From Candidatus Saccharimonadota bacterium (lineage in GTDB: Bacteria > Patescibacteriota > Saccharimonadia > Saccharimonadales > UBA4665), in NCBI GenBank assembly GCA_014377525.1, contig JACMPL010000022.1, positions 1 to 42,661 of the forward strand: a DNA stretch of 42,661 nucleotides, in the 5' to 3' direction. The position numbers and the translations under genes were made by a program. Below, one piece after another: positions 7,231-14,633 of the stretch. The notes beneath the pieces were generated by a model. The model made no database searches. It was not told the DNA's origin and saw nothing but the letters and a program-made list of their open reading frames with translations. Numbering within the stretch: position 1 is the first letter of the stretch; each line of letters opens with the position of its first letter.

Positions 7231-7944
7231 ATGAGCCCTGAAATTACAACAATTGATATTCAAAAGCTAACCTTGATGTCTGATAGTGCAGCTATGATTG
7301 TCAATCCAATTGGGCGAGCTGCGTGGTCGTCTCAATTGAGCCAACGGCCAATCGCTGATATTGATCAGGTGTATGGCAGTCCCGAAGTTGGTACTGTCAT
7401 GTATGATGAGCTAACTAATTTGCAAAAGGCCTATTTAGCGCCCCTGGCGATGCGTCGATGGGGCACTGGCGTCGTGATAGCGGCCTATGCGCCGGAGTTA
7501 ACGTCGCGGCCATTTAACGAGCGATTTGTCGGTTACGCGTTGATGCGTCCCTATCTGCCCGGCAACGCGCTGTCTCGGTTTGGTCGCAGCTATTTTCGGC
7601 GTGGCGACCCTACTGCATTTTTACAGGACATTGCCGTGCTCCCAAGTTATCAACACCGGGGAATTGCTTCGGCGCTTGTTGCTGCTCAATCTAAAGAATT
7701 ACGACATCTATCACGTACTACTACCGAGTGTTTGGTAGGAAACGAACAAAGCTATGGGTTTTTACGTAGTCTCGGCTACACCGTCGTACAAGGCAGCCTG
7801 CGCTCAAAACAGCATTTTGGTGCAGACACCAAACCGGCTTTAGCTTGGACGCTACAGGCTGAGCTATACCAAGTCGAACGGTCGGCATCCGAACATGCCA
7901 ACCGAAAAGCTTCCAATTTTACTACCAATAAATACGTCGATTAA
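7231..7944 (+). CDS. GNAT-family N-acetyltransferase
   Basis: 237-residue cytosolic protein with the acetyl-CoA binding core of the GNAT fold: the strand FLQDIAVLPSYQHRGIASAL carries the Q/RxxGxG/A pyrophosphate loop (QHRGIA), followed by the helix VAAQSKELRHL and the late-strand signature NEQSYGFLRSLGYTVVQ. GNATs transfer an acetyl group from acetyl-CoA to an amine; the substrate cannot be read from the sequence. It is shorter than MshD, which has two GNAT repeats, so I would not assign it to thiol synthesis although thiol-type genes lie 7 kb away. ATG 7276 is a possible shorter start. Confidence 0.82.
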   Translation: MSPEITTIDIQKLTLMSDSAAMIVNPIGRAAWSSQLSQRPIADIDQVYGSPEVGTVMYDELTNLQKAYLAPLAMRRWGTGVVIAAYAPELTSRPFNERFVGYALMRPYLPGNALSRFGRSYFRRGDPTAFLQDIAVLPSYQHRGIASALVAAQSKELRHLSRTTTECLVGNEQSYGFLRSLGYTVVQGSLRSKQHFGADTKPALAWTLQAELYQVERSASEHANRKASNFTTNKYVD

Positions 7945-7982
7945 TGGACTGATTCGGCCAGTGTAGCGCTTAGCAAGTAGGG

Positions 7983-7988
7983 TACAAT
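7983..7988 (+). promoter_or_regulatory. -10 hexamer TACAAT, 6 nt before ATG 7995
   Basis: TACAAT ends 6 nt before the start; no Shine-Dalgarno sequence is present between them. Confidence 0.5.
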
Positions 7989-7994
7989 ACAGTC

Positions 7995-8771
7995 ATGCCT
8001 TCACTACTGCAGCGTCTCGAATCCCTCAAGCCATTTACCGAACGCGAAGCTTGGAATTTATACCGCGCGGCGGCGCTAGCCGAAGCATTCGGATGGACCG
8101 TTTTAATTATCGGTATCGTGTGGCGAGGGACTAATTTGCCCGGTCACAAAATTGCCGTGCCAATTGCTGGAAATATTCACGGCAGTATATTTTTGATTTA
8201 TTTTGCAGTCCTGATAGCTACCTACAGTAGCTTGGGCTGGTCGCGCCTAAAGTTAATAATCGCAGCGATGGTCGGTGTTCCGCCCTACGGCACGCTAGTA
8301 TTCGAGCAGATCATCGTCCGAATACGTAGCCGAACTATCGGTAACGCCCACTACTTGGTCGAAGCACGAGCCATCATCGAACATAATGGCAAAATTTTAG
8401 CCGTAAAGTCCGCGAGCAGCGTTGATTGGCAGCTGCTAGGCGGTGCAGTATCGTCGACCTCACCGGAACTGGCGCTGACAGCGTTCGTTCGTGCCGCAAC
8501 CGGCATCATTCCTGTTCTTGGACCAGCCCGCTTTATTCACCAATCTGGAACAGGTAACCGTCAAAAGCTAATCTTTTTTTTTACGGTACGAAATGCTGTA
8601 GATTTTAACCAGAGCACCGTAACGAAACAGATGAAACGGGACGCGTTAATCGATCAGATCAAATTTTTAGATACAGACCAATTAGATACAATATCGCCGC
8701 AGGCCATACGTGCCCAGCTCCGACAAATGCAATCATCAGATAAACAAATACCCGTCAAATTTATTGTCTGA
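7995..8771 (+). CDS. DUF3817-like membrane domain fused to a degenerate Nudix domain
   Basis: 258 residues. The first 110 resemble DUF3817 integral membrane proteins: the RAAALAEAFGWTVLIIGIVW helix, then VPIAGNIHGSIFLIYFAVLI and a third hydrophobic segment near 88-107. Residues about 115-250 have the layout of a Nudix domain (VEARAIIEHNGKILAV, then WQLLGGAVSS). The box, however, reads GAVSSTSPELALTAFVRAATGI, in which the REUXEE metal-binding glutamates are gone, so hydrolase activity is unlikely. A ligand-sensing or scaffold role at the membrane is my inference. The C-terminal domain assignment rests on pattern only and should be tested by profile search. Confidence 0.65.
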   Translation: MPSLLQRLESLKPFTEREAWNLYRAAALAEAFGWTVLIIGIVWRGTNLPGHKIAVPIAGNIHGSIFLIYFAVLIATYSSLGWSRLKLIIAAMVGVPPYGTLVFEQIIVRIRSRTIGNAHYLVEARAIIEHNGKILAVKSASSVDWQLLGGAVSSTSPELALTAFVRAATGIIPVLGPARFIHQSGTGNRQKLIFFFTVRNAVDFNQSTVTKQMKRDALIDQIKFLDTDQLDTISPQAIRAQLRQMQSSDKQIPVKFIV

Positions 8772-8827
8772 AGCTTATGCTGTATGACAGCAGCGTGGTA
8801 TAGTAACGTTAACGAATTGACAGGATT

Positions 8828-9337
8828 ATGCTTCAAAAAAAAATGCAAGATGATGTGATGGGCAACGTGCAGCAATGGATTGAGCTATTGACAGCTGGTG
8901 ACTGTGAGCCAGAGGAACGACTTGATTCTATTACGAGAGATGCGGCGGCGATCTTTAGGGTACCAATCGCTATGATTAATTTAGTCGATAAAAATACTAT
9001 CAGGTTCAAATCTAGTGTTGGCCTCAAACAGGGCGCGAGTATCAATCGTTGTGGAGCATTCTGCTCAATTGGCGTGCGCCAAGAAAACTGCTTTAGTATT
9101 GTCGATGCCGTGAATCACGCCGACTACAAAGATTATTCACTTGTCACAGGTCCCCTAAAAATCCGTTCATACATTGGTAAGTCTGTGCATGCTCCCGATG
9201 GCACGAGAATTGGCACACTTTGCTTATTTGACACTAAACCACGTAAATATACCCGTGTAGAAGTGCATGCGCTGTGCGATCTCGCCGAAATGGTTGATTA
9301 TGAAATTCGCGAAATCCTTGGTAACAAATCGTTTTAA
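8828..9337 (+). CDS. GAF domain protein
   Basis: 169-residue soluble protein that is almost entirely one GAF domain (about 25-160), with family features such as ITRDAAAIFRVPIAMINLVD, the NRCGAFCSIGV stretch and IGTLCLFDTKPR. Free-standing GAF proteins of this type bind small ligands or take part in redox sensing or methionine-sulfoxide reduction. The cysteines here (Cys in INRCGAFCSI and later in RQENCF) are worth noting, but the fRMsr active-site pattern is not clearly matched. There is no output domain. An alternative start is ATG 8843. A TATAGT near 8798-8803 is the likely promoter, leaving a short leader. Confidence 0.8.
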   Translation: MLQKKMQDDVMGNVQQWIELLTAGDCEPEERLDSITRDAAAIFRVPIAMINLVDKNTIRFKSSVGLKQGASINRCGAFCSIGVRQENCFSIVDAVNHADYKDYSLVTGPLKIRSYIGKSVHAPDGTRIGTLCLFDTKPRKYTRVEVHALCDLAEMVDYEIREILGNKSF

Positions 9338-9397
9338 AAGGTTTAGTCGTCAGCTGTAAGAAACTTATCAATTTTAGCTAGCCCCCATCCGTTATAC

Positions 9398-9403
9398 TAT
9401 AAT
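9398..9403 (+). promoter_or_regulatory. -10 hexamer TATAAT, 7 nt before GTG 9411
   Basis: A perfect TATAAT overlaps a second TATACT at 9393-9398. It ends 7 nt before GTG 9411, which supports a leaderless GTG start for the exported protein. Confidence 0.5.
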
Positions 9404-9410
9404 CGTATTA

Positions 9411-9878
9411 GTGATTATTTACGGGAAAATACCTAGGGAGGTTATTTTGAAATTATTCGTGGGCGTGGCTTTGGTTGGAATTATTAACTTGTCGGGCGTC
9501 GTCGCTATGGGGGCGGCGTCGGCTGACACGCTCAGTGTACAAGGCGACGTTATCAAGGTGCAGGCGGCAGTGGCCGCTCAAACATACGTTATCGTTGATA
9601 ACACAGGCAAGATCATACAAATCGATAGTAATAATAATCTTGATATCAATCCGGTGGTATATAGCAATAAAGTTCAAGCCGGTAACGAGCGTCCGTTAAC
9701 GGCCGCTGTTGCTCGGCAGTACCGGATCCTCGTGCCGCTTGGCAAAAATCATATCGGTACCTTGTATAAGCAGTCACCCTACAAACTGATGCCGCATGAG
9801 AAATCCGAGGCTCCGATGCTGCAATTTATGCACTTAGTTGGAACTGTATCGCCGCTAAATAATATGTTCGTGCTGTAG
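9411..9878 (+). CDS. Exported hypothetical protein (signal peptide)
   Basis: The N-terminus is a classic export signal: hydrophobic core LFVGVALVGIINLSGVVAMG with a cleavage site after ASA (before DTLSV). The mature part of about 115 residues is beta-rich, with VIVDNTGKIIQIDSNNN and YRILVPLGKNHIGTLYK, and has no recognised motif. Two starts are possible in the same frame: GTG 9411, placed 7 nt after TATAAT, and TTG 9447, placed 6 nt after a strong GGGAGG (9435-9440). Both give a working signal peptide. It ends 3 bp before the following oxidoreductase, so the two are probably co-transcribed. Confidence 0.7.
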   Translation: MIIYGKIPREVILKLFVGVALVGIINLSGVVAMGAASADTLSVQGDVIKVQAAVAAQTYVIVDNTGKIIQIDSNNNLDINPVVYSNKVQAGNERPLTAAVARQYRILVPLGKNHIGTLYKQSPYKLMPHEKSEAPMLQFMHLVGTVSPLNNMFVL

Positions 9879-9881
9879 CAC

Positions 9882-10550
9882 ATGAGTTCTAATACTGCGA
9901 AGGAGGCTATCCTCGTCATCGGTGCCAGTGGCCGCATCGGAGAGTTAATCGTGCGTAGCGCCATAGACGCTGGATACCGTGTGGTAGCTTTAGTCCGCGA
10001 CGCGTCTAGAATAACCCCTTTGAAGAACCTTGAGATTACCGTGGGTGATCCTATGGATCCGGCAGTAATCTTGCAATCAGTCCATGGTGTCCAAGCCGTG
10101 GTTGTCGCACTAGCCAGCGGCCGTAGTAGCGACGCACCTTGGGCAAAATCAGTTGGCCCAAAAAATTTATTAGAACTTACTACTAAGCATTTACTGGCGG
10201 CTGGCGCTAGCCGCATTGTGGTAGTATCGGCGGCCGGTGTAGGCGATTCGCGAGCCAAAGCCCCCAGGATTATCAATTTTTTGGCGCAGCATACCGATCT
10301 ATCCATCGGTTTTAACGACCACGACCGCGCCGATCAGCTTCTAGTTGCTAGCAATTGTAATTATACGATCATCCGCCCAACTGGCCTGACGAACAAGGTA
10401 AGTTTAAATTCTACACTTATATGCACCGTAGCTGATACGGTCAAGCCACAAGCCTGGATTAGCCGCAACCAAGTTGCTCGGTTCGCACTAGATGCGCTGA
10501 ACACTACAAAATATGATCGTAGGACTGTGATAATTTCAGACCAAAACTAA
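9882..10550 (+). CDS. NAD(P)-binding oxidoreductase, atypical SDR/NmrA-like
   Basis: 222 residues with an N-terminal Rossmann motif VIGASGRIGELIV (GxxGxxG), a second strand VVALVRD with the dinucleotide-recognising Arg typical of NADPH users, the central VVVVSAAGVGDS and the late NYTIIRPTGLTN, a hallmark of atypical SDRs of the NmrA/BVR-B type. It lacks a classical YxxxK pair. Such proteins act as flavin/quinone reductases or redox sensors; the proximity to FMN_bind and ApbE makes a flavin link attractive but unproven. It begins 4 nt after the previous stop, suggesting coupling. A GCGAAGGAGG within the first codons is inside the gene, so it does not define this start. Confidence 0.82.
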   Translation: MSSNTAKEAILVIGASGRIGELIVRSAIDAGYRVVALVRDASRITPLKNLEITVGDPMDPAVILQSVHGVQAVVVALASGRSSDAPWAKSVGPKNLLELTTKHLLAAGASRIVVVSAAGVGDSRAKAPRIINFLAQHTDLSIGFNDHDRADQLLVASNCNYTIIRPTGLTNKVSLNSTLICTVADTVKPQAWISRNQVARFALDALNTTKYDRRTVIISDQN

Positions 10551-10623
10551 AGCTATTCTGAAGATACTACAAATGCATGGTAAGTAAAATTTGATTTTAG
10601 TACTTACATTACTTAAGTACTGA

Positions 10624-10629
10624 TATACT
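10624..10629 (+). promoter_or_regulatory. Extended -10 TGaTATACT, 6 nt before ATG 10636
   Basis: TATACT preceded by TGA (extended -10) ends 6 nt before the FMN_bind start. Confidence 0.55.
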
Positions 10630-10635
10630 GTAATA

Positions 10636-11085
10636 ATGGAAAAGAAAACCTTTTTAAGCGGTGTCGCAGCCTTCGGCGTTGTCGGGCTAGCCATTACCGG
10701 TTTCGTTGTTGCTAGCAACAGTAAATCCGGCAGCTCCAGCAGTGTAGCTAGCAGTACGGCTCAGACCAAAATTGCGGCTGTGCCAACATCGTTTAAGGAC
10801 GGCAACTACACGGCAACCGGTCAATATAACTCGCCGGACGGTGTTGAAAAAATCGATGTCACGATAGTTGTCGCAAATAATATGATCACGGACACGACCG
10901 CTAAGCCGCAGCCGGCATCATATACCTCGATGCGCTACCAAGGCTGGTTCCTCGATGCTTACAAAACTATGGTTGTCGGCAAAAAATTATCTAGTATTAA
11001 ACTCGGTAACGTATCTGGTTCATCATTGACACCAATAGGCTACGACGATGCCATCACTCAGATCCAGCAACAAGCAAAAGCCTAG
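10636..11085 (+). CDS. Membrane-anchored FMN-binding domain protein (flavinylated carrier)
   Basis: 149 residues: an N-terminal anchor or signal (FLSGVAAFGVVGLAITGFVV), a Ser-rich linker, then an FMN_bind domain from about 50 (FKDGNYTATGQYNSPDGVEK) to the end. In this family FMN is attached by a phosphoester to the last Ser/Thr of an SGAT-like motif. Here the C-terminal VSGSSLTPIGYDDAI supplies SGSSLT, so the Thr is the probable acceptor. The protein should hold its flavin outside the membrane and act in extracytosolic electron transfer. ApbE, the enzyme that attaches the flavin, overlaps its 3' end by 38 bp in another frame, strong evidence that they work together. Confidence 0.88.
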   Translation: MEKKTFLSGVAAFGVVGLAITGFVVASNSKSGSSSSVASSTAQTKIAAVPTSFKDGNYTATGQYNSPDGVEKIDVTIVVANNMITDTTAKPQPASYTSMRYQGWFLDAYKTMVVGKKLSSIKLGNVSGSSLTPIGYDDAITQIQQQAKA

Positions 11086-11977
11086 CATAACGCTTTCATT
11101 CGAAGCGATTGGTACCGTTTGGCGAATAAACTACATCGGTGAGGAATCACATGCTAACAACATAGCGAGCTTAATAAGTGCTCGTATAGTTATATTTGAT
11201 AAAAACTATTCGCGGTTCCGAACTGACTCTCTAATTACGCAGTTTAGCCGACAGCAGCGACCGATGACTCCAATTTTTACAACGATGCCAGCCGACTTTG
11301 ACGTTATGATACGATTTTATCGCCAACTATACGACGTATCTGACGGTCTCGTGACTCCACTGATTGGCACGGCACTTGATGACGCCGGATATGACACCGC
11401 CTACAGCTTTCAGCCACGAACCATACGAGCGACGCCGGCTTGGGATAATGCCATGACATATCACCGCGGTAGCTTGACTATCAAACAACCCATCCTGCTC
11501 GATTTCGGTGCCGCCGGTAAGGGCTACTTGGTCGATATCCTAGCGGACTTACTTACACAACAAAGTATTACGACGTTTACGATTGATGCTGGTGGCGACA
11601 TCCGGCATCAATCGGCAACCCCTAACTATATTGGCCTCGAAGATCCATCAGACGTAACGAAAGTCATTGGACTGGCCGAACTCAAGAACGCCAGTATATG
11701 CGGGTCAGCTGGCAATCGTCGAGCCTGGAAAGGTTACAACCACATCTTAAATCCTGACACTAAATTATCGCCGGTCAACATCAGCGCCGTATGGGTAATC
11801 GCAGAGACGACCATGATTGCTGACGGTTTAGCTACCGCGTTATCTTTTGTAGAGCCATGTCGATTAGCCGACTTTAGGTTTGAATATCTACTGATTCGAT
11901 CTGACGGTAGCCGCCAATCATCGCCCAATTTTCCGGTTCGTTTTTTTGACACGCCCATGGTTTATGAGCTTAAGTAA
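11048..11977 (+). CDS. apbE: FAD:protein FMN transferase ApbE
   Basis: Transfers FMN from FAD to a Ser/Thr of FMN_bind proteins using Mg2+. In 309 residues it shows the ApbE landmarks: FEAIGTVWRINYIG near the N-terminus, LDFGAAGKGYLVDILADLL (the DxGGxxKGxxxD region), TIDAGGDIRH, a variant of the GxxRR segment (CGSAGNRRAWKGYNHILNP) and ETTMIADGLATALSF with the metal-binding Asp. ATG 11048 lies inside the preceding FMN_bind gene, so the two are co-expressed. No signal peptide or lipobox is visible, whereas many ApbE proteins are exported. Flavin attachment may therefore happen in the cytosol, or export may use another route. Confidence 0.9.
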   Translation: MPSLRSSNKQKPSITLSFEAIGTVWRINYIGEESHANNIASLISARIVIFDKNYSRFRTDSLITQFSRQQRPMTPIFTTMPADFDVMIRFYRQLYDVSDGLVTPLIGTALDDAGYDTAYSFQPRTIRATPAWDNAMTYHRGSLTIKQPILLDFGAAGKGYLVDILADLLTQQSITTFTIDAGGDIRHQSATPNYIGLEDPSDVTKVIGLAELKNASICGSAGNRRAWKGYNHILNPDTKLSPVNISAVWVIAETTMIADGLATALSFVEPCRLADFRFEYLLIRSDGSRQSSPNFPVRFFDTPMVYELK

Positions 11978-12064
11978 TATAACTACGTAAGATTTTTAAT
12001 CGTAGTTGCGAGTATGTATCGCTATAGTAGGTATTAGTAATATCTACTATAGTAAGGAGATCGC

Positions 12065-12835
12065 ATGTCCACACAACAAGAAAAAGCCACACTATTTACC
12101 AGCCTCCACATTCCGGGCAATCCCGTAATCATATATAACGGTTGGGACGCTGGCAGTATTAAAGTAATTGCCAGTAGCGGCGCCAAGGTGGTCGGTACAG
12201 GAGGCCATGGCGTCGCCGAATCACTTGGCTATGAAGATGGTGAGAATATGCCGATCGACGCTTTGATGGAGAACACCCGAAGGATCGTTGCGACCACCGA
12301 TTTGCCGGTAACTATCGATATCGATGGTGGTTACGGCGAAAGCCCGATGGAAGTCAGCGCGACTGTTACCAAGGCGATTGAAGCCGGTGCCGTTGGCATT
12401 AATTTCGAAGATCAGAATGTCGGTGGCGAGGGTGTCCATGAAACCGTCGTACAAGCCGCTCGCATTATGGCTGCCCGTAAAACTGCAGACGATGCTCAGG
12501 TGCCCCTATTCATTAATTCCCGCACTGATATTTTCCGCCTTGCCTCAGACCCGAGTGAACATGCTGGATTGCTCGCCGAAGCCGTTGAGCGAGCTACCGC
12601 TTACAGATAAGCTGGCGCAAGCGGCTTTTTTGCGCCAGGACTTACCGATCTTGATCTTATTAGACAACTATGCGAAGCCTCACCATTACCAGTTAACATA
12701 CTAAAAATTCCGGGATCGCCGACGCACAACGAACTAGCCGCAGCCGGCGTCGCCCGCATTAGTTACGGTCCATTTCCATGGCTCGCAATGCTTGCATGGC
12801 TTAAAGTGCAGGCCAGCGAAGCGTACAACAGCTAA
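12065..12835 (+). pseudogene. Isocitrate lyase/PEP mutase-family protein interrupted by an in-frame TAA
   Basis: The first 181 codons encode an ICL/PEPM-type TIM barrel: NPVIIYNGWDAGSIKVIAS, the Mg-binding VTIDIDGGYGE, GAVGINFEDQN and FINSRTDIF. TAA 12608-12610 follows ATAYR, and the frame then continues with the exact family sequence (AGASGFFAPGLTDLDLIRQL, then SYGPFPWLAMLAWL) to TAA 12833-12835. The total of about 256 codons is normal. GAA or AAA to TAA would explain it. A 9-bp inverted repeat (12612-12620 with 12630-12638) begins 1 nt after the stop. AAGGAGAT lies 4 nt before ATG 12065. Uninterrupted homologues act on C-C or C-P bonds of 2-oxo acids. Confidence 0.88.
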
Positions 12836-12849
12836 GTGCAGCGCTAATA

Positions 12850-12919
12850 ATTCGAAAGTAGCTCGTACAATCCCAGGTTTCCCATCCGGGATCTAAAAGC
12901 TAACCATTAGATGATCGCA
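12850..12919 (-). tRNA. tRNA-like remnant (tRNA-Gly-like 5' half), probably not functional
   Basis: Read on the minus strand from 12918, GCGATCATCTAATGGTTAG looks like the acceptor and D-arm of a glycine tRNA. Past the D-arm a CCC triplet sits near the anticodon position, but the flanking stem does not pair; the sequence instead forms a different hairpin (ATCCCGG with CCTGGGAT). No 3' acceptor strand GATCGC follows where it should. I read it as a decayed or truncated tRNA. It could also be a chance likeness. Confidence 0.35.
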
Positions 12920-12974
12920 CAGACAAAAATAAGTAGTAAACTAGCGGCGCTTTAGTGCACTACAGTGCGAATTG

Positions 12975-14633
12975 TTACTGTCCGATTGGAATTGTCTCGC
13001 CGCCGAGTTTGCTAGCAAAGAAGCTGTCGTGTGAAATATAAATAACTGCGCCGTTATAATCCTTGAGAGCGTTTTCGAGCTCTTCAATACTAGGTAGATC
13101 TAGGTGGTTAGTCGGTTCGTCCAATATTAAGATTTCCGGGTCACCAGCTAGCATACGAATCAGCTGGAAACGAGCTTTCTGGCCACCGCTGAGACGCTCG
13201 ATCGGCGTGTCGCCATCGGTTACCGGGTTGAACAGATAGTCGCCCAGTAGCTGCTTAACGCGTTGTTCACTAACCGGTAAGTCTTTATCGACGAACACCT
13301 GTTCGATCGCTTGGCCAAGCGTCATCGGAATATATTTGGCAGCAATTTCCTGCTCGTATAAACCCAACCGAATATCGCGGTCAACCATCAGATGGCCGGA
13401 GAAACGTTGTGACGGTGCTTGGATGTCGTTGACTTTAGCCATGATAGCTTGGACCAGGGTCGTTTTACCGGCACCGTTGCGGCCATGCAAACGTAATCGT
13501 TCACCTTCAGCCAGGGAGAAATTGATATCTCCGAATAGCGGCTTATCGTCGTAACCGAGACTGAGCTTTTCGGCCTTAACGAGCATTCGTGATGTCTTGG
13601 AGTCGCTACTACGAGTCGTGAGCTTAATATTAACTGCCTTATATTTTTCGTAAGCCGCAGTCATTTTTTCGTTGAGATCGCCAGCTGAATCCTGATCAAT
13701 CCAGAATGATGGCTGCTCGGCAGTACTTAACCGAGCCAACTCTTTGGAAGCTTTTTGTTCCTGAGATTTAAAGCGTTTGATCGTGCCCGGGTCACGGGCT
13801 TTTTCCTTCATACGACGGAACCGAATAACATCTTCACGGAGGTTGCTAATCCGGCGTTGGACGAGATCGTATTCGTTGACCTGTGAAGTGATTTGATTTT
13901 TATTGATCCGTAAATATGCTCCATAATTGCCCTTGAACGGGAAGGCGCGGCCATCGCGAATTTCGATGATTCGGTCGACCTCTTGCAGAACGTCACGGTC
14001 ATGGGTGATGACCAGTACAGCTTCGCCTGCGGCCTTAAGCCAACGCACGAACGCTTGTTTGGCGACGTAGTCCATGTGGTTTGTTGGCTCATCGATAAGA
14101 GCAATATCGCCCCGGCTGCGCTGTACTTTGATAAGCTCGATCATACGCTTTTGTCCACCACTTAATTCACCAACGGTACCATGTAGTTTTTTAGGGTCAA
14201 GTTGGTAACTTTCAAAGGCTTGAGAAATTTCATCTTCGATCTCAAAGTAACCGAGGTGATTGAACCGCTCGAGCGCTTCGGAATACACTTCGATTTTACG
14301 AGTATTACTGCCCATAAGCTCGGGATAAGTGTCCATAATGTGCGCTAACTTAGCGTACTCAGGTAAGTCCCCTTGGATATACTCCAACACTGTTTTGTGT
14401 TCATGACCGTGGTGCTCTTGGCGGGAAAATATAACGACACTACCACGCTTAAGGTTAATTTCGCCTTGAAAATCACTATCGTCGCCAGTAACCATGCCAA
14501 ACAGTGTTGATTTACCGGTTCCATTGCGACCAATTAGACCGACTTTTTCGCCTTCTTGAATGTCGAAGTTGAGATCGGTGTAGAGGATTTTATCACCAAA
14601 AGATTTTTCGGTTAGTTTTACAGAAAGGATCAT
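12975..14633 (-). CDS. ABC-F family ATPase (ribosome-associated)
   Basis: 552 residues with two ABC domains and no membrane segment, the ABC-F architecture. NBD1: Walker A GRNGTGKST, signature LSGGQKR, Walker B IALIDEPTNHMD. A charged linker (about 245-300, with RRMKEKARDPGTIKRFKSQE) corresponds to the interdomain P-site tRNA interaction motif. NBD2: Walker A GRNGAGKTT, signature LSGGQKAR, Walker B ILILDEPTNHLD. ABC-F proteins bind the ribosomal E site to rescue or tune translation, and some protect against antibiotics; which applies here cannot be told. There is no EttA-like long arm. A -10 element 8 nt upstream implies a near-leaderless mRNA. Confidence 0.93.
   Translation of the reverse strand: MILSVKLTEKSFGDKILYTDLNFDIQEGEKVGLIGRNGTGKSTLFGMVTGDDSDFQGEINLKRGSVVIFSRQEHHGHEHKTVLEYIQGDLPEYAKLAHIMDTYPELMGSNTRKIEVYSEALERFNHLGYFEIEDEISQAFESYQLDPKKLHGTVGELSGGQKRMIELIKVQRSRGDIALIDEPTNHMDYVAKQAFVRWLKAAGEAVLVITHDRDVLQEVDRIIEIRDGRAFPFKGNYGAYLRINKNQITSQVNEYDLVQRRISNLREDVIRFRRMKEKARDPGTIKRFKSQEQKASKELARLSTAEQPSFWIDQDSAGDLNEKMTAAYEKYKAVNIKLTTRSSDSKTSRMLVKAEKLSLGYDDKPLFGDINFSLAEGERLRLHGRNGAGKTTLVQAIMAKVNDIQAPSQRFSGHLMVDRDIRLGLYEQEIAAKYIPMTLGQAIEQVFVDKDLPVSEQRVKQLLGDYLFNPVTDGDTPIERLSGGQKARFQLIRMLAGDPEILILDEPTNHLDLPSIEELENALKDYNGAVIYISHDSFFASKLGGETIPIGQ

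What the first reader, a model, noticed from the sequence alone, without database searches (positions are those of the whole stretch)
9411..11977. Extracytosolic flavinylation module without a known electron-transfer partner
An anchored FMN_bind protein with acceptor motif SGSSLT overlaps apbE, with an exported protein and an NADPH-type SDR just upstream. Such modules normally sit with NQR/RNF, ferric or fumarate reductases, or quinone-linked proteins; none is visible here. The ApbE also lacks an export signal. The exported 9411 protein may be a new partner, and the SDR a cytosolic flavin or NADPH source.
Basis: partly seen in the sequence, partly recalled or inferred. Interest (0 to 1): 0.5.

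Follow-up and report, generated by a model that had tools for sequence, protein, structure and literature searches.

The report
Flavin carrier with its electron source elsewhere
A tiny bacterium carries a gene pair for a surface flavin protein and the enzyme that loads the flavin; the usual electron-supplying gene is not next door but sits elsewhere in the same genome, and the loading enzyme, here and in relatives, has no address tag to leave the cell although its target does.

Summary
The carrier–apbE pair (10636–11977) is real. The 9411 protein and the SDR look incidental. The "missing partner" is known: in relatives the pair clusters with a fused NqrB/RnfD–NqrF-like membrane reductase (12 of 20 family carrier hits; 52 of 80 named loci), the published "NQR/RNF-like" class. 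The window's genome encodes that reductase on another contig (C33:186–1691), behind the tail of a second apbE, and a ferric-reductase-like protein on C12. So this is most likely a detached carrier–ApbE pair of a known kind of extracytosolic electron transfer, served in trans.

ApbE lacks an export signal across the group sampled (Patescibacteria, Actinomycetota): 70 of 74 have no hydrophobic leader, and in 63 of 73 loci the enzyme core starts within 60 nt of the carrier's stop. The carriers have leaders (71 of 71 scored), many lipobox-like. Either the carrier is flavinylated in the cytosol before Sec export, or ApbE leaves by an unknown route. My searches found no paper stating this; figures and supplements of the two key papers were not seen.

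The parts
10636..11085 (+). anchored FMN-bind carrier, 149 aa; hydrophobic N-terminal segment about residues 7-26 (by eye), short Ser-rich linker, FMN-bind domain from about residue 54
   Evidence: model m7cc994eb72fc mean pLDDT 82, blocks from residue 51 at 94 or more; 8p2a Z 10.6, NqrC Z 8.4
11014..11031 (+). flavinylation motif SGSSLT, residues 127-132; inferred FMN acceptor Ser130 (11023-11025)
   Evidence: G128, S130, T132 invariant in the 18 family carriers aligned; S130 in 45 of 46; aligned with the T of SGAT in 8p2a
11048..11977 (+). apbE, FAD:protein FMN transferase, 309 aa, no signal peptide; S220, H232, D259 retained
   Evidence: PF02424 121.9 bits; PDB ApbEs down to 6.3e-12; invariants in 17 family ApbEs; start codons
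10599..10621 (.). perfect 7-9-7 inverted repeat AGTACTT..AAGTACT between the SDR and the carrier; possible operator of the carrier-apbE pair
   Evidence: only match in the window with up to 2 mismatches, 0.10 expected, at least one match in 9 of 100 shuffles; in no fetched locus other than copies of this one
9411..9878 (+). small exported protein of unknown function, judged not part of the system
   Evidence: structure prediction failed (pLDDT 37)
9882..10550 (+). atypical SDR (NAD_binding_10/NmrA-like), judged not part of the system

Best explanation
The window holds a detached carrier–ApbE pair related to the NQR/RNF-like extracytosolic electron-transfer class. ApbE takes FMN from FAD and fixes it on Ser130 of an anchored FMN-bind domain that works outside the membrane. 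Electrons from cytosolic NAD(P)H cross the membrane through the NqrB/RnfD–NqrF fusion on contig C33 (or, less likely, the ferric-reductase-like protein on C12), reduce the carrier FMN, and pass to an extracellular acceptor such as Fe(III) or a quinone. Shown by computation: the fold, the conserved motif, ApbE membership and catalytic residues, the reductase elsewhere in the genome, and the canonical cluster in relatives. Inferred: flavinylation itself, pairing in trans, direction of flow, final acceptor.
For: NqrB–F in the carrier's cluster in 12 of 20 family carrier hits (in L041 one gene lies between, in L046 apbE is missing) and in 52 of 80 named loci (in L164 on the other strand). Window ApbE nests among NqrB–F-linked ApbEs; the ferric-reductase-linked ones split off at 100/100 (bootstrap not settled; the fork with L126/L150/L157 is 94/90). 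Own genome: full-length NqrB–F, 42% identical to G087's, preceded by the last 61 aa of a second ApbE. C33 looks genuine: metK occurs once in the genome, on C33, and its four best matches among 13 other genomes are same-genus. No [ST]G[AS][TS] site in the first 300 residues of its NqrB–F, as PMC11334425 (section 9 read) reports for the class. PMC8238504 places the class primarily in Actinobacteria and CPR (Results parts 1 and 2 of 3 read).
Against: C33's NqrB–F groups with G067's and G015b's (100/100), whose carriers read AGASDT and SGASDT, so it may serve a second carrier lost at the contig edge. C33's tetranucleotide make-up is the 4th lowest of 33 own pieces (0.835, median 0.909). A ferric-reductase-like rival exists in the genome. 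22 of 80 named loci also lack NqrB–F within 6 kb, so orphan pairs are not rare. No co-expression or complex evidence.
Confidence: 0.7

Rival explanations
1. Decaying relic: this locus lost its own NqrB-F and the C33 locus does the work; carrier and ApbE persist without function.
For: Only one of the seven ApbEs in its group (88/86) without an adjacent reductase; the usual F-N after the motif is Y136-D137 here; the next gene downstream has an in-frame stop.
Against: Both ORFs intact; motif and ApbE catalytic residues kept; the only full-length ApbE and the only carrier found in a 97% complete genome.
Confidence: 0.18
2. One reading: the 9411 protein is a new extracytosolic partner and the SDR supplies NADPH or flavin.
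For: 9411 homologue also beside the carrier in G088; both genes upstream on the same strand, 9411 and SDR 3 nt apart.
Against: Near the carrier in 2 of 6 genomes with both and in 1 of 80 named loci; SDR beside it in 0 of 80. No Cys, no flavinylation motif in the 9411 protein (inspection). An 85-nt gap with an operator-like repeat separates them from the carrier.
Confidence: 0.04
3. The carrier pairs with the ferric-reductase-like protein on C12 (MsrQ-like class).
For: C12:529-1899 has PF01794 + FAD_binding_8 + NAD_binding_1; in G014, G019 and G020 such proteins adjoin carrier-apbE.
Against: Window ApbE lies outside the clade of the five ApbEs grouped as ferric-reductase type (100/100; three of the five have the reductase confirmed); motif is SGSSLT as in NqrB-F-linked carriers, not GGASLT.
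Confidence: 0.08

Closest known systems
NQR/RNF-like flavinylated systems (Meheust 2021 PMC8238504; Huang 2024 PMC11334425)
   Same: Anchored FMN-bind carrier and ApbE of the kind that sits beside an NqrB/RnfD-NqrF fusion; the fusion is in the genome and lacks the NqrB flavinylation motif
   Different: Here carrier-apbE is detached from the reductase gene, and ApbE carries no signal peptide (whether the papers' figures show this for other members was not seen)
NqrC / RnfG subunits and FMN-bind domains (8p2a SaFMN3 domain 2)
   Same: Fold and position of the acceptor residue
   Different: Ser instead of Thr as acceptor; below Pfam detection; single domain on a short anchor
Cytosolic ApbEs (Klebsiella fumarate reductase, trypanosomatids; review PMC12052999, passages)
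   Same: ApbE without signal peptide
   Different: Their targets stay inside the cell; here the target is anchored outside

Membership tests
NQR/RNF-like flavinylated gene cluster | NqrB/RnfD membrane domain fused to an NAD-binding domain in the same cluster as FMN-bind/ApbE | tested here: not met
   Not beside the window pair; a full fusion lies on C33 behind another apbE. The window pair is therefore called related to this class, not a cluster of it
NQR/RNF-like flavinylated gene cluster | Membrane domain lacks the covalent FMN site of NqrB/RnfD | tested here: met
   No [ST]G[AS][TS] in the first 300 residues of the C33 protein
FMN_bind (PF04205) | Score above the curated cut-off | tested here: not met
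   No hit at E<=0.1; homologue L045 18.3 bits against 22
FMN-bind fold | Fold match to solved FMN-bind domains with aligned acceptor motif | tested here: met
   8p2a Z 10.6, rmsd 2.2, 87 residues; NqrC Z 8.4; motif alignment (E 0.016). A lipoylation-system chain (3r07_C, Z 8.7) ranks second and IscU/SufU chains score Z 7-8; Foldseek gave no E<=0.001
ApbE (PF02424) | Above cut-off, with Ser/His/Asp catalytic residues | tested here: met
   121.9 against 25.6 bits; S220, H232, D259 invariant in 17; their match to the V. cholerae residues named in PMC12052999 is by inspection
ApbE (PF02424) | N-terminal signal or lipobox for export (usual, not universal) | tested here: not met
   no hydrophobic leader in 17 of 17 family ApbEs
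MsrQ-like flavinylated gene cluster | PF01794 protein in the cluster | tested here: not met
   None among the 18 of 46 window ORFs scanned, the eight from 7231 to 12610 included; one at C12:529-1899
Complete NQR or RNF complex | Remaining Nqr/Rnf subunits in the genome | not tested
   No searches left

The most novel reading that the evidence does not exclude
In Patescibacteria and Actinomycetota (and on at least one Agrobacterium plasmid) ApbE works inside the cell: it flavinylates the carrier in the cytosol, probably during or just after translation (overlapping or abutting genes), and Sec then exports an already flavinylated carrier. That reverses the accepted order of export first, flavinylation second.
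Probability: 0.4. Interest if true: 0.65.

Novelty: new variant of a known kind. Interest (0 to 1): 0.38.

Why it matters
The orphan reading is resolved: a known kind of electron source is encoded elsewhere in the genome, so no new partner class is needed. What remains open and testable is where these bacteria attach the flavin. If it happens inside, Sec must pass a protein bearing a covalent FMN and FAD need not be exported; if outside, ApbE must leave without a recognisable signal. Either answer would change how extracytosolic flavinylation is drawn. It also bears on genome mining: a survey that keeps only signal-bearing ApbEs and Pfam-detectable FMN-bind domains can miss such pairs, as the window's would be.

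Tried and rejected
9411 structure: two-row alignment, pLDDT 37, no inference. Tat as a general export route for folded holo-carrier: TatC not found in the own genome and present in 8 of the 18 carrier genomes (my count; 29 of 93 overall), so rejected as general. Cytosolic FAD from RibF: PF06574 over cut-off in 0 of 18 carrier genomes, two with weak hits below it; this speaks against a simple home-made FAD supply. Cytosolic FAD is still implied by the FAD/NAD-type domain of NqrB–F, so FAD is perhaps scavenged or made by another enzyme (inference). DoxX as the partner: no convincing homologue in the own genome (E 0.027). Promoter/terminator scan 9300–12150: 3 promoter-like sites against 4.9 in shuffles, 0 terminators against 2.4. 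Rfam 9000–13200: nothing at E 0.5. The NqrB–F tree held three out-of-frame rows (G075, G040, G057) and is replaced (G075 dropped: no long frame found). The ApbE tree left out eight named loci that are the same records as family genomes and apbE hits of 200 bits or less. Alignment A1 used 18 of the 20 family carrier hits: L053 breaks off before the motif, L055 is a 119-aa fragment with GGASVT. Hydropathy yardstick: five plasmid-borne ApbEs scored 2.36, 2.41, 1.99, 1.39 (twin-arginine-like start) and 0.96 (Shinella, beside nqrF; no leader seen), so the 1.6 limit can miss Tat-type signals and signal-less ApbEs are not confined to this group; the start-codon distances do not depend on that limit. 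Of 27 lipobox-like matches, two (L154, L161) look spurious.

Full report
What is there. The window is a whole contig (C4) of an 890,971-base, 97% complete genome in 40 contigs. On the + strand lie a small exported protein (9411–9878), an SDR (9882–10550), an 85-nt gap with a perfect inverted repeat (10599–10621), the carrier (10636–11085) and apbE (11048–11977). Downstream is a PEP-mutase-type gene with an in-frame stop at 12608–12610; open coding resumes behind it to 12835.

The carrier. No Pfam or NCBIfam FMN-bind model reaches it at E 0.1. An alignment of 46 carriers (A3) gave a model with mean pLDDT 82, and 94 or more from residue 51 on. Its best structural match is SaFMN3 domain 2 (8p2a, Z 10.6); a lipoylation-system chain (3r07_C, Z 8.7) comes second, then CbFMN4 domain 1 and three NqrC chains at Z 8.4; IscU/SufU chains follow at Z 7–8, and Foldseek alone gave no match at E 0.001. 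The motif SGSSLT aligns with SGATYT of 8p2a. As FMN is linked to the T of DGxSGAT (PMC10339131, passages), the acceptor is Ser130. It is conserved in the 18 family carriers aligned and in 45 of 46 of A3; L192 reads SGDLLT. A3 was gathered partly by a pattern holding SGSSLT, so the family carriers, found by whole-protein search, are the fairer count.

The partner. The carrier was found in 18 of 93 family genomes (20 hits). In 12 of the 20 the cluster holds a 483–544-aa protein with 5–10 hydrophobic segments; in L041 one gene lies between, in L046 apbE is missing. All 12 places match the C33 NqrB–F at E 4.1e-90 or better. Two of them, and C33, were scanned with Pfam: NAD_binding_1 in all three; NqrB/RnfD (PF03116) over its cut-off in L045, under it in C33 (19.8 against 27.7), absent at E<=0.1 in L037. 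Three more hits adjoin a ferric-reductase-like protein (L050, L051, L052). By my count, 54 of 93 family genomes hold a near full-length NqrB–F; the call's own tally of 80 includes short matches. In the named collection 93 places encoded a relative and the best 80 were kept: Saccharibacteria, other Patescibacteria, Herbiconiux, Microbacterium, Gordonia, Nakamurella and some unnamed or differently labelled MAGs; at least eight are the same records as family genomes. Of these 80, 52 have carrier, apbE and NqrB–F within 6 kb (in L164 the last on the other strand), 22 carrier and apbE only, 6 a carrier only; some contigs end early. This is the NQR/RNF-like class that PMC8238504 places primarily in Actinobacteria and CPR (Results parts 1 and 2 of 3 read).

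In the own genome. The NqrB–F query finds one full-length match, C33:186–1691, and shorter soluble or ferric-reductase-type matches on C16 and C12. The 185 bases before it encode the last 61 residues of a second ApbE, so C33 begins inside a canonical cluster. The whole-genome search shows one carrier, the window's. metK occurs once in the genome, on C33, cut by the contig end. It is 81–85% identical to metK of five same-genus genomes, which include the four best matches, 81% to G083 and G080, and 79% to G067. In G080 and G015, NqrB–F and metK are also close neighbours (coordinates). These facts favour C33 as genuine; its base composition is a mild caution. The genome also has a ferric-reductase-like protein on C12. 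In the ApbE tree (82 rows) the window lies among NqrB–F-linked ApbEs, far from the five grouped as ferric-reductase type; some inner forks are weak and the bootstrap had not settled. Most simply, the window lineage lost or moved the adjacent reductase. The reductase on C33 groups with those of G067 and G015b (100/100), not with the adjacent type of the same genus (G087, G088), so pairing in trans is inferred.

9411 and SDR. The 9411 homologue occurs in 15 of 93 genomes (last hit marginal at E 0.0098). Six genomes have both it and the carrier; they lie close together in two. The SDR's relatives are distant and unlinked. Both are best left out of the system.

Signal-less ApbE. In 17 of 17 family ApbEs the N-terminal region has no hydrophobic stretch (at most 1.13 on a 17-residue Kyte-Doolittle mean), against at least 2.15 in the family carriers except the fragment L055. 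In the named set 70 of 74 ApbEs stay below 1.6 while all 71 carriers that could be scored reach it, 49 of them 2.0 or more. Of the four ApbEs above, L170 and L172 have the stretch abutting the domain, L186 in a frame overlapping the carrier, and L159 is marginal at 1.61. The gap from the carrier's stop to the ApbE core motif has a median of 33 nt and is 60 nt or less in 63 of 73 loci. Many carriers look like lipoproteins (27 lipobox-like matches, two doubtful). No dedicated signal-peptide predictor was at hand. An Agrobacterium plasmid shows the same pairing: a signal-less ApbE (38.8% identical) next to a small FMN-bind-like protein whose upstream frame reads as a leader (no Pfam support for it). 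The review PMC12052999 (passages) says most ApbEs are secreted and names cytosolic ones whose targets stay inside. Searches with ApbE, flavinylation, signal-peptide, Saccharibacteria, Patescibacteria and DoxX terms listed no paper on this (listings only beyond the papers named). PMC8238504 marks secreted genes in its figures, which I could not see, and no supplements were read.

How it may work. Cytosolic flavinylation followed by Sec export fits the missing signal, the gene overlap and the exported acceptor. Against it: a classical FAD synthetase scores over its cut-off in 0 of 18 carrier genomes, ApbE on an unfolded chain is untested, and non-classical export of ApbE is possible. I give it 0.4.

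Noticed in passing
L130, L131, L132, L136, L139, L143, L144, L147, L149, L152, L158, L163, L190, L193 (other Patescibacteria or unnamed MAGs): Of 21 named loci with carrier-apbE and no NqrB-F, 14 have a small DoxX-like membrane protein beside the pair (5 of the 14 scanned, 4 over the DoxX cut-off). DoxX does not occur in the main text of PMC8238504 or PMC11334425, and the top 10 of 24 papers listed for DoxX/FMN-binding/flavinylat hold no DoxX. Possible new membrane partner of flavinylated carriers.
   Followed up: partly
window 12065-12835 +: PEP-mutase-type gene with an in-frame stop at 12608-12610 and conserved-looking coding behind it: pseudogene or assembly error.
   Followed up: partly
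18 carrier genomes: Bacterial FAD synthetase (PF06574) over cut-off in 0 of 18 genomes that encode such carriers; two weak hits. FAD source unknown, perhaps scavenged.
   Followed up: no
L219 5004-6304: Agrobacterium plasmid with a signal-less ApbE next to a small FMN-bind-like protein, with aldo/keto reductase genes nearby.
   Followed up: partly
L174 6481-7497: A second, 338-aa carrier with a long Pro/Ser/Thr-rich linker and motif GGASLT between the first carrier and apbE.
   Followed up: no
G004:C7, G070:C2: 9411-type secreted protein close to tatC in two genomes.
   Followed up: no
window 12868-12924 -: Short tRNA-like stretch noted by eye; neither ARAGORN nor Rfam calls it.
   Followed up: partly
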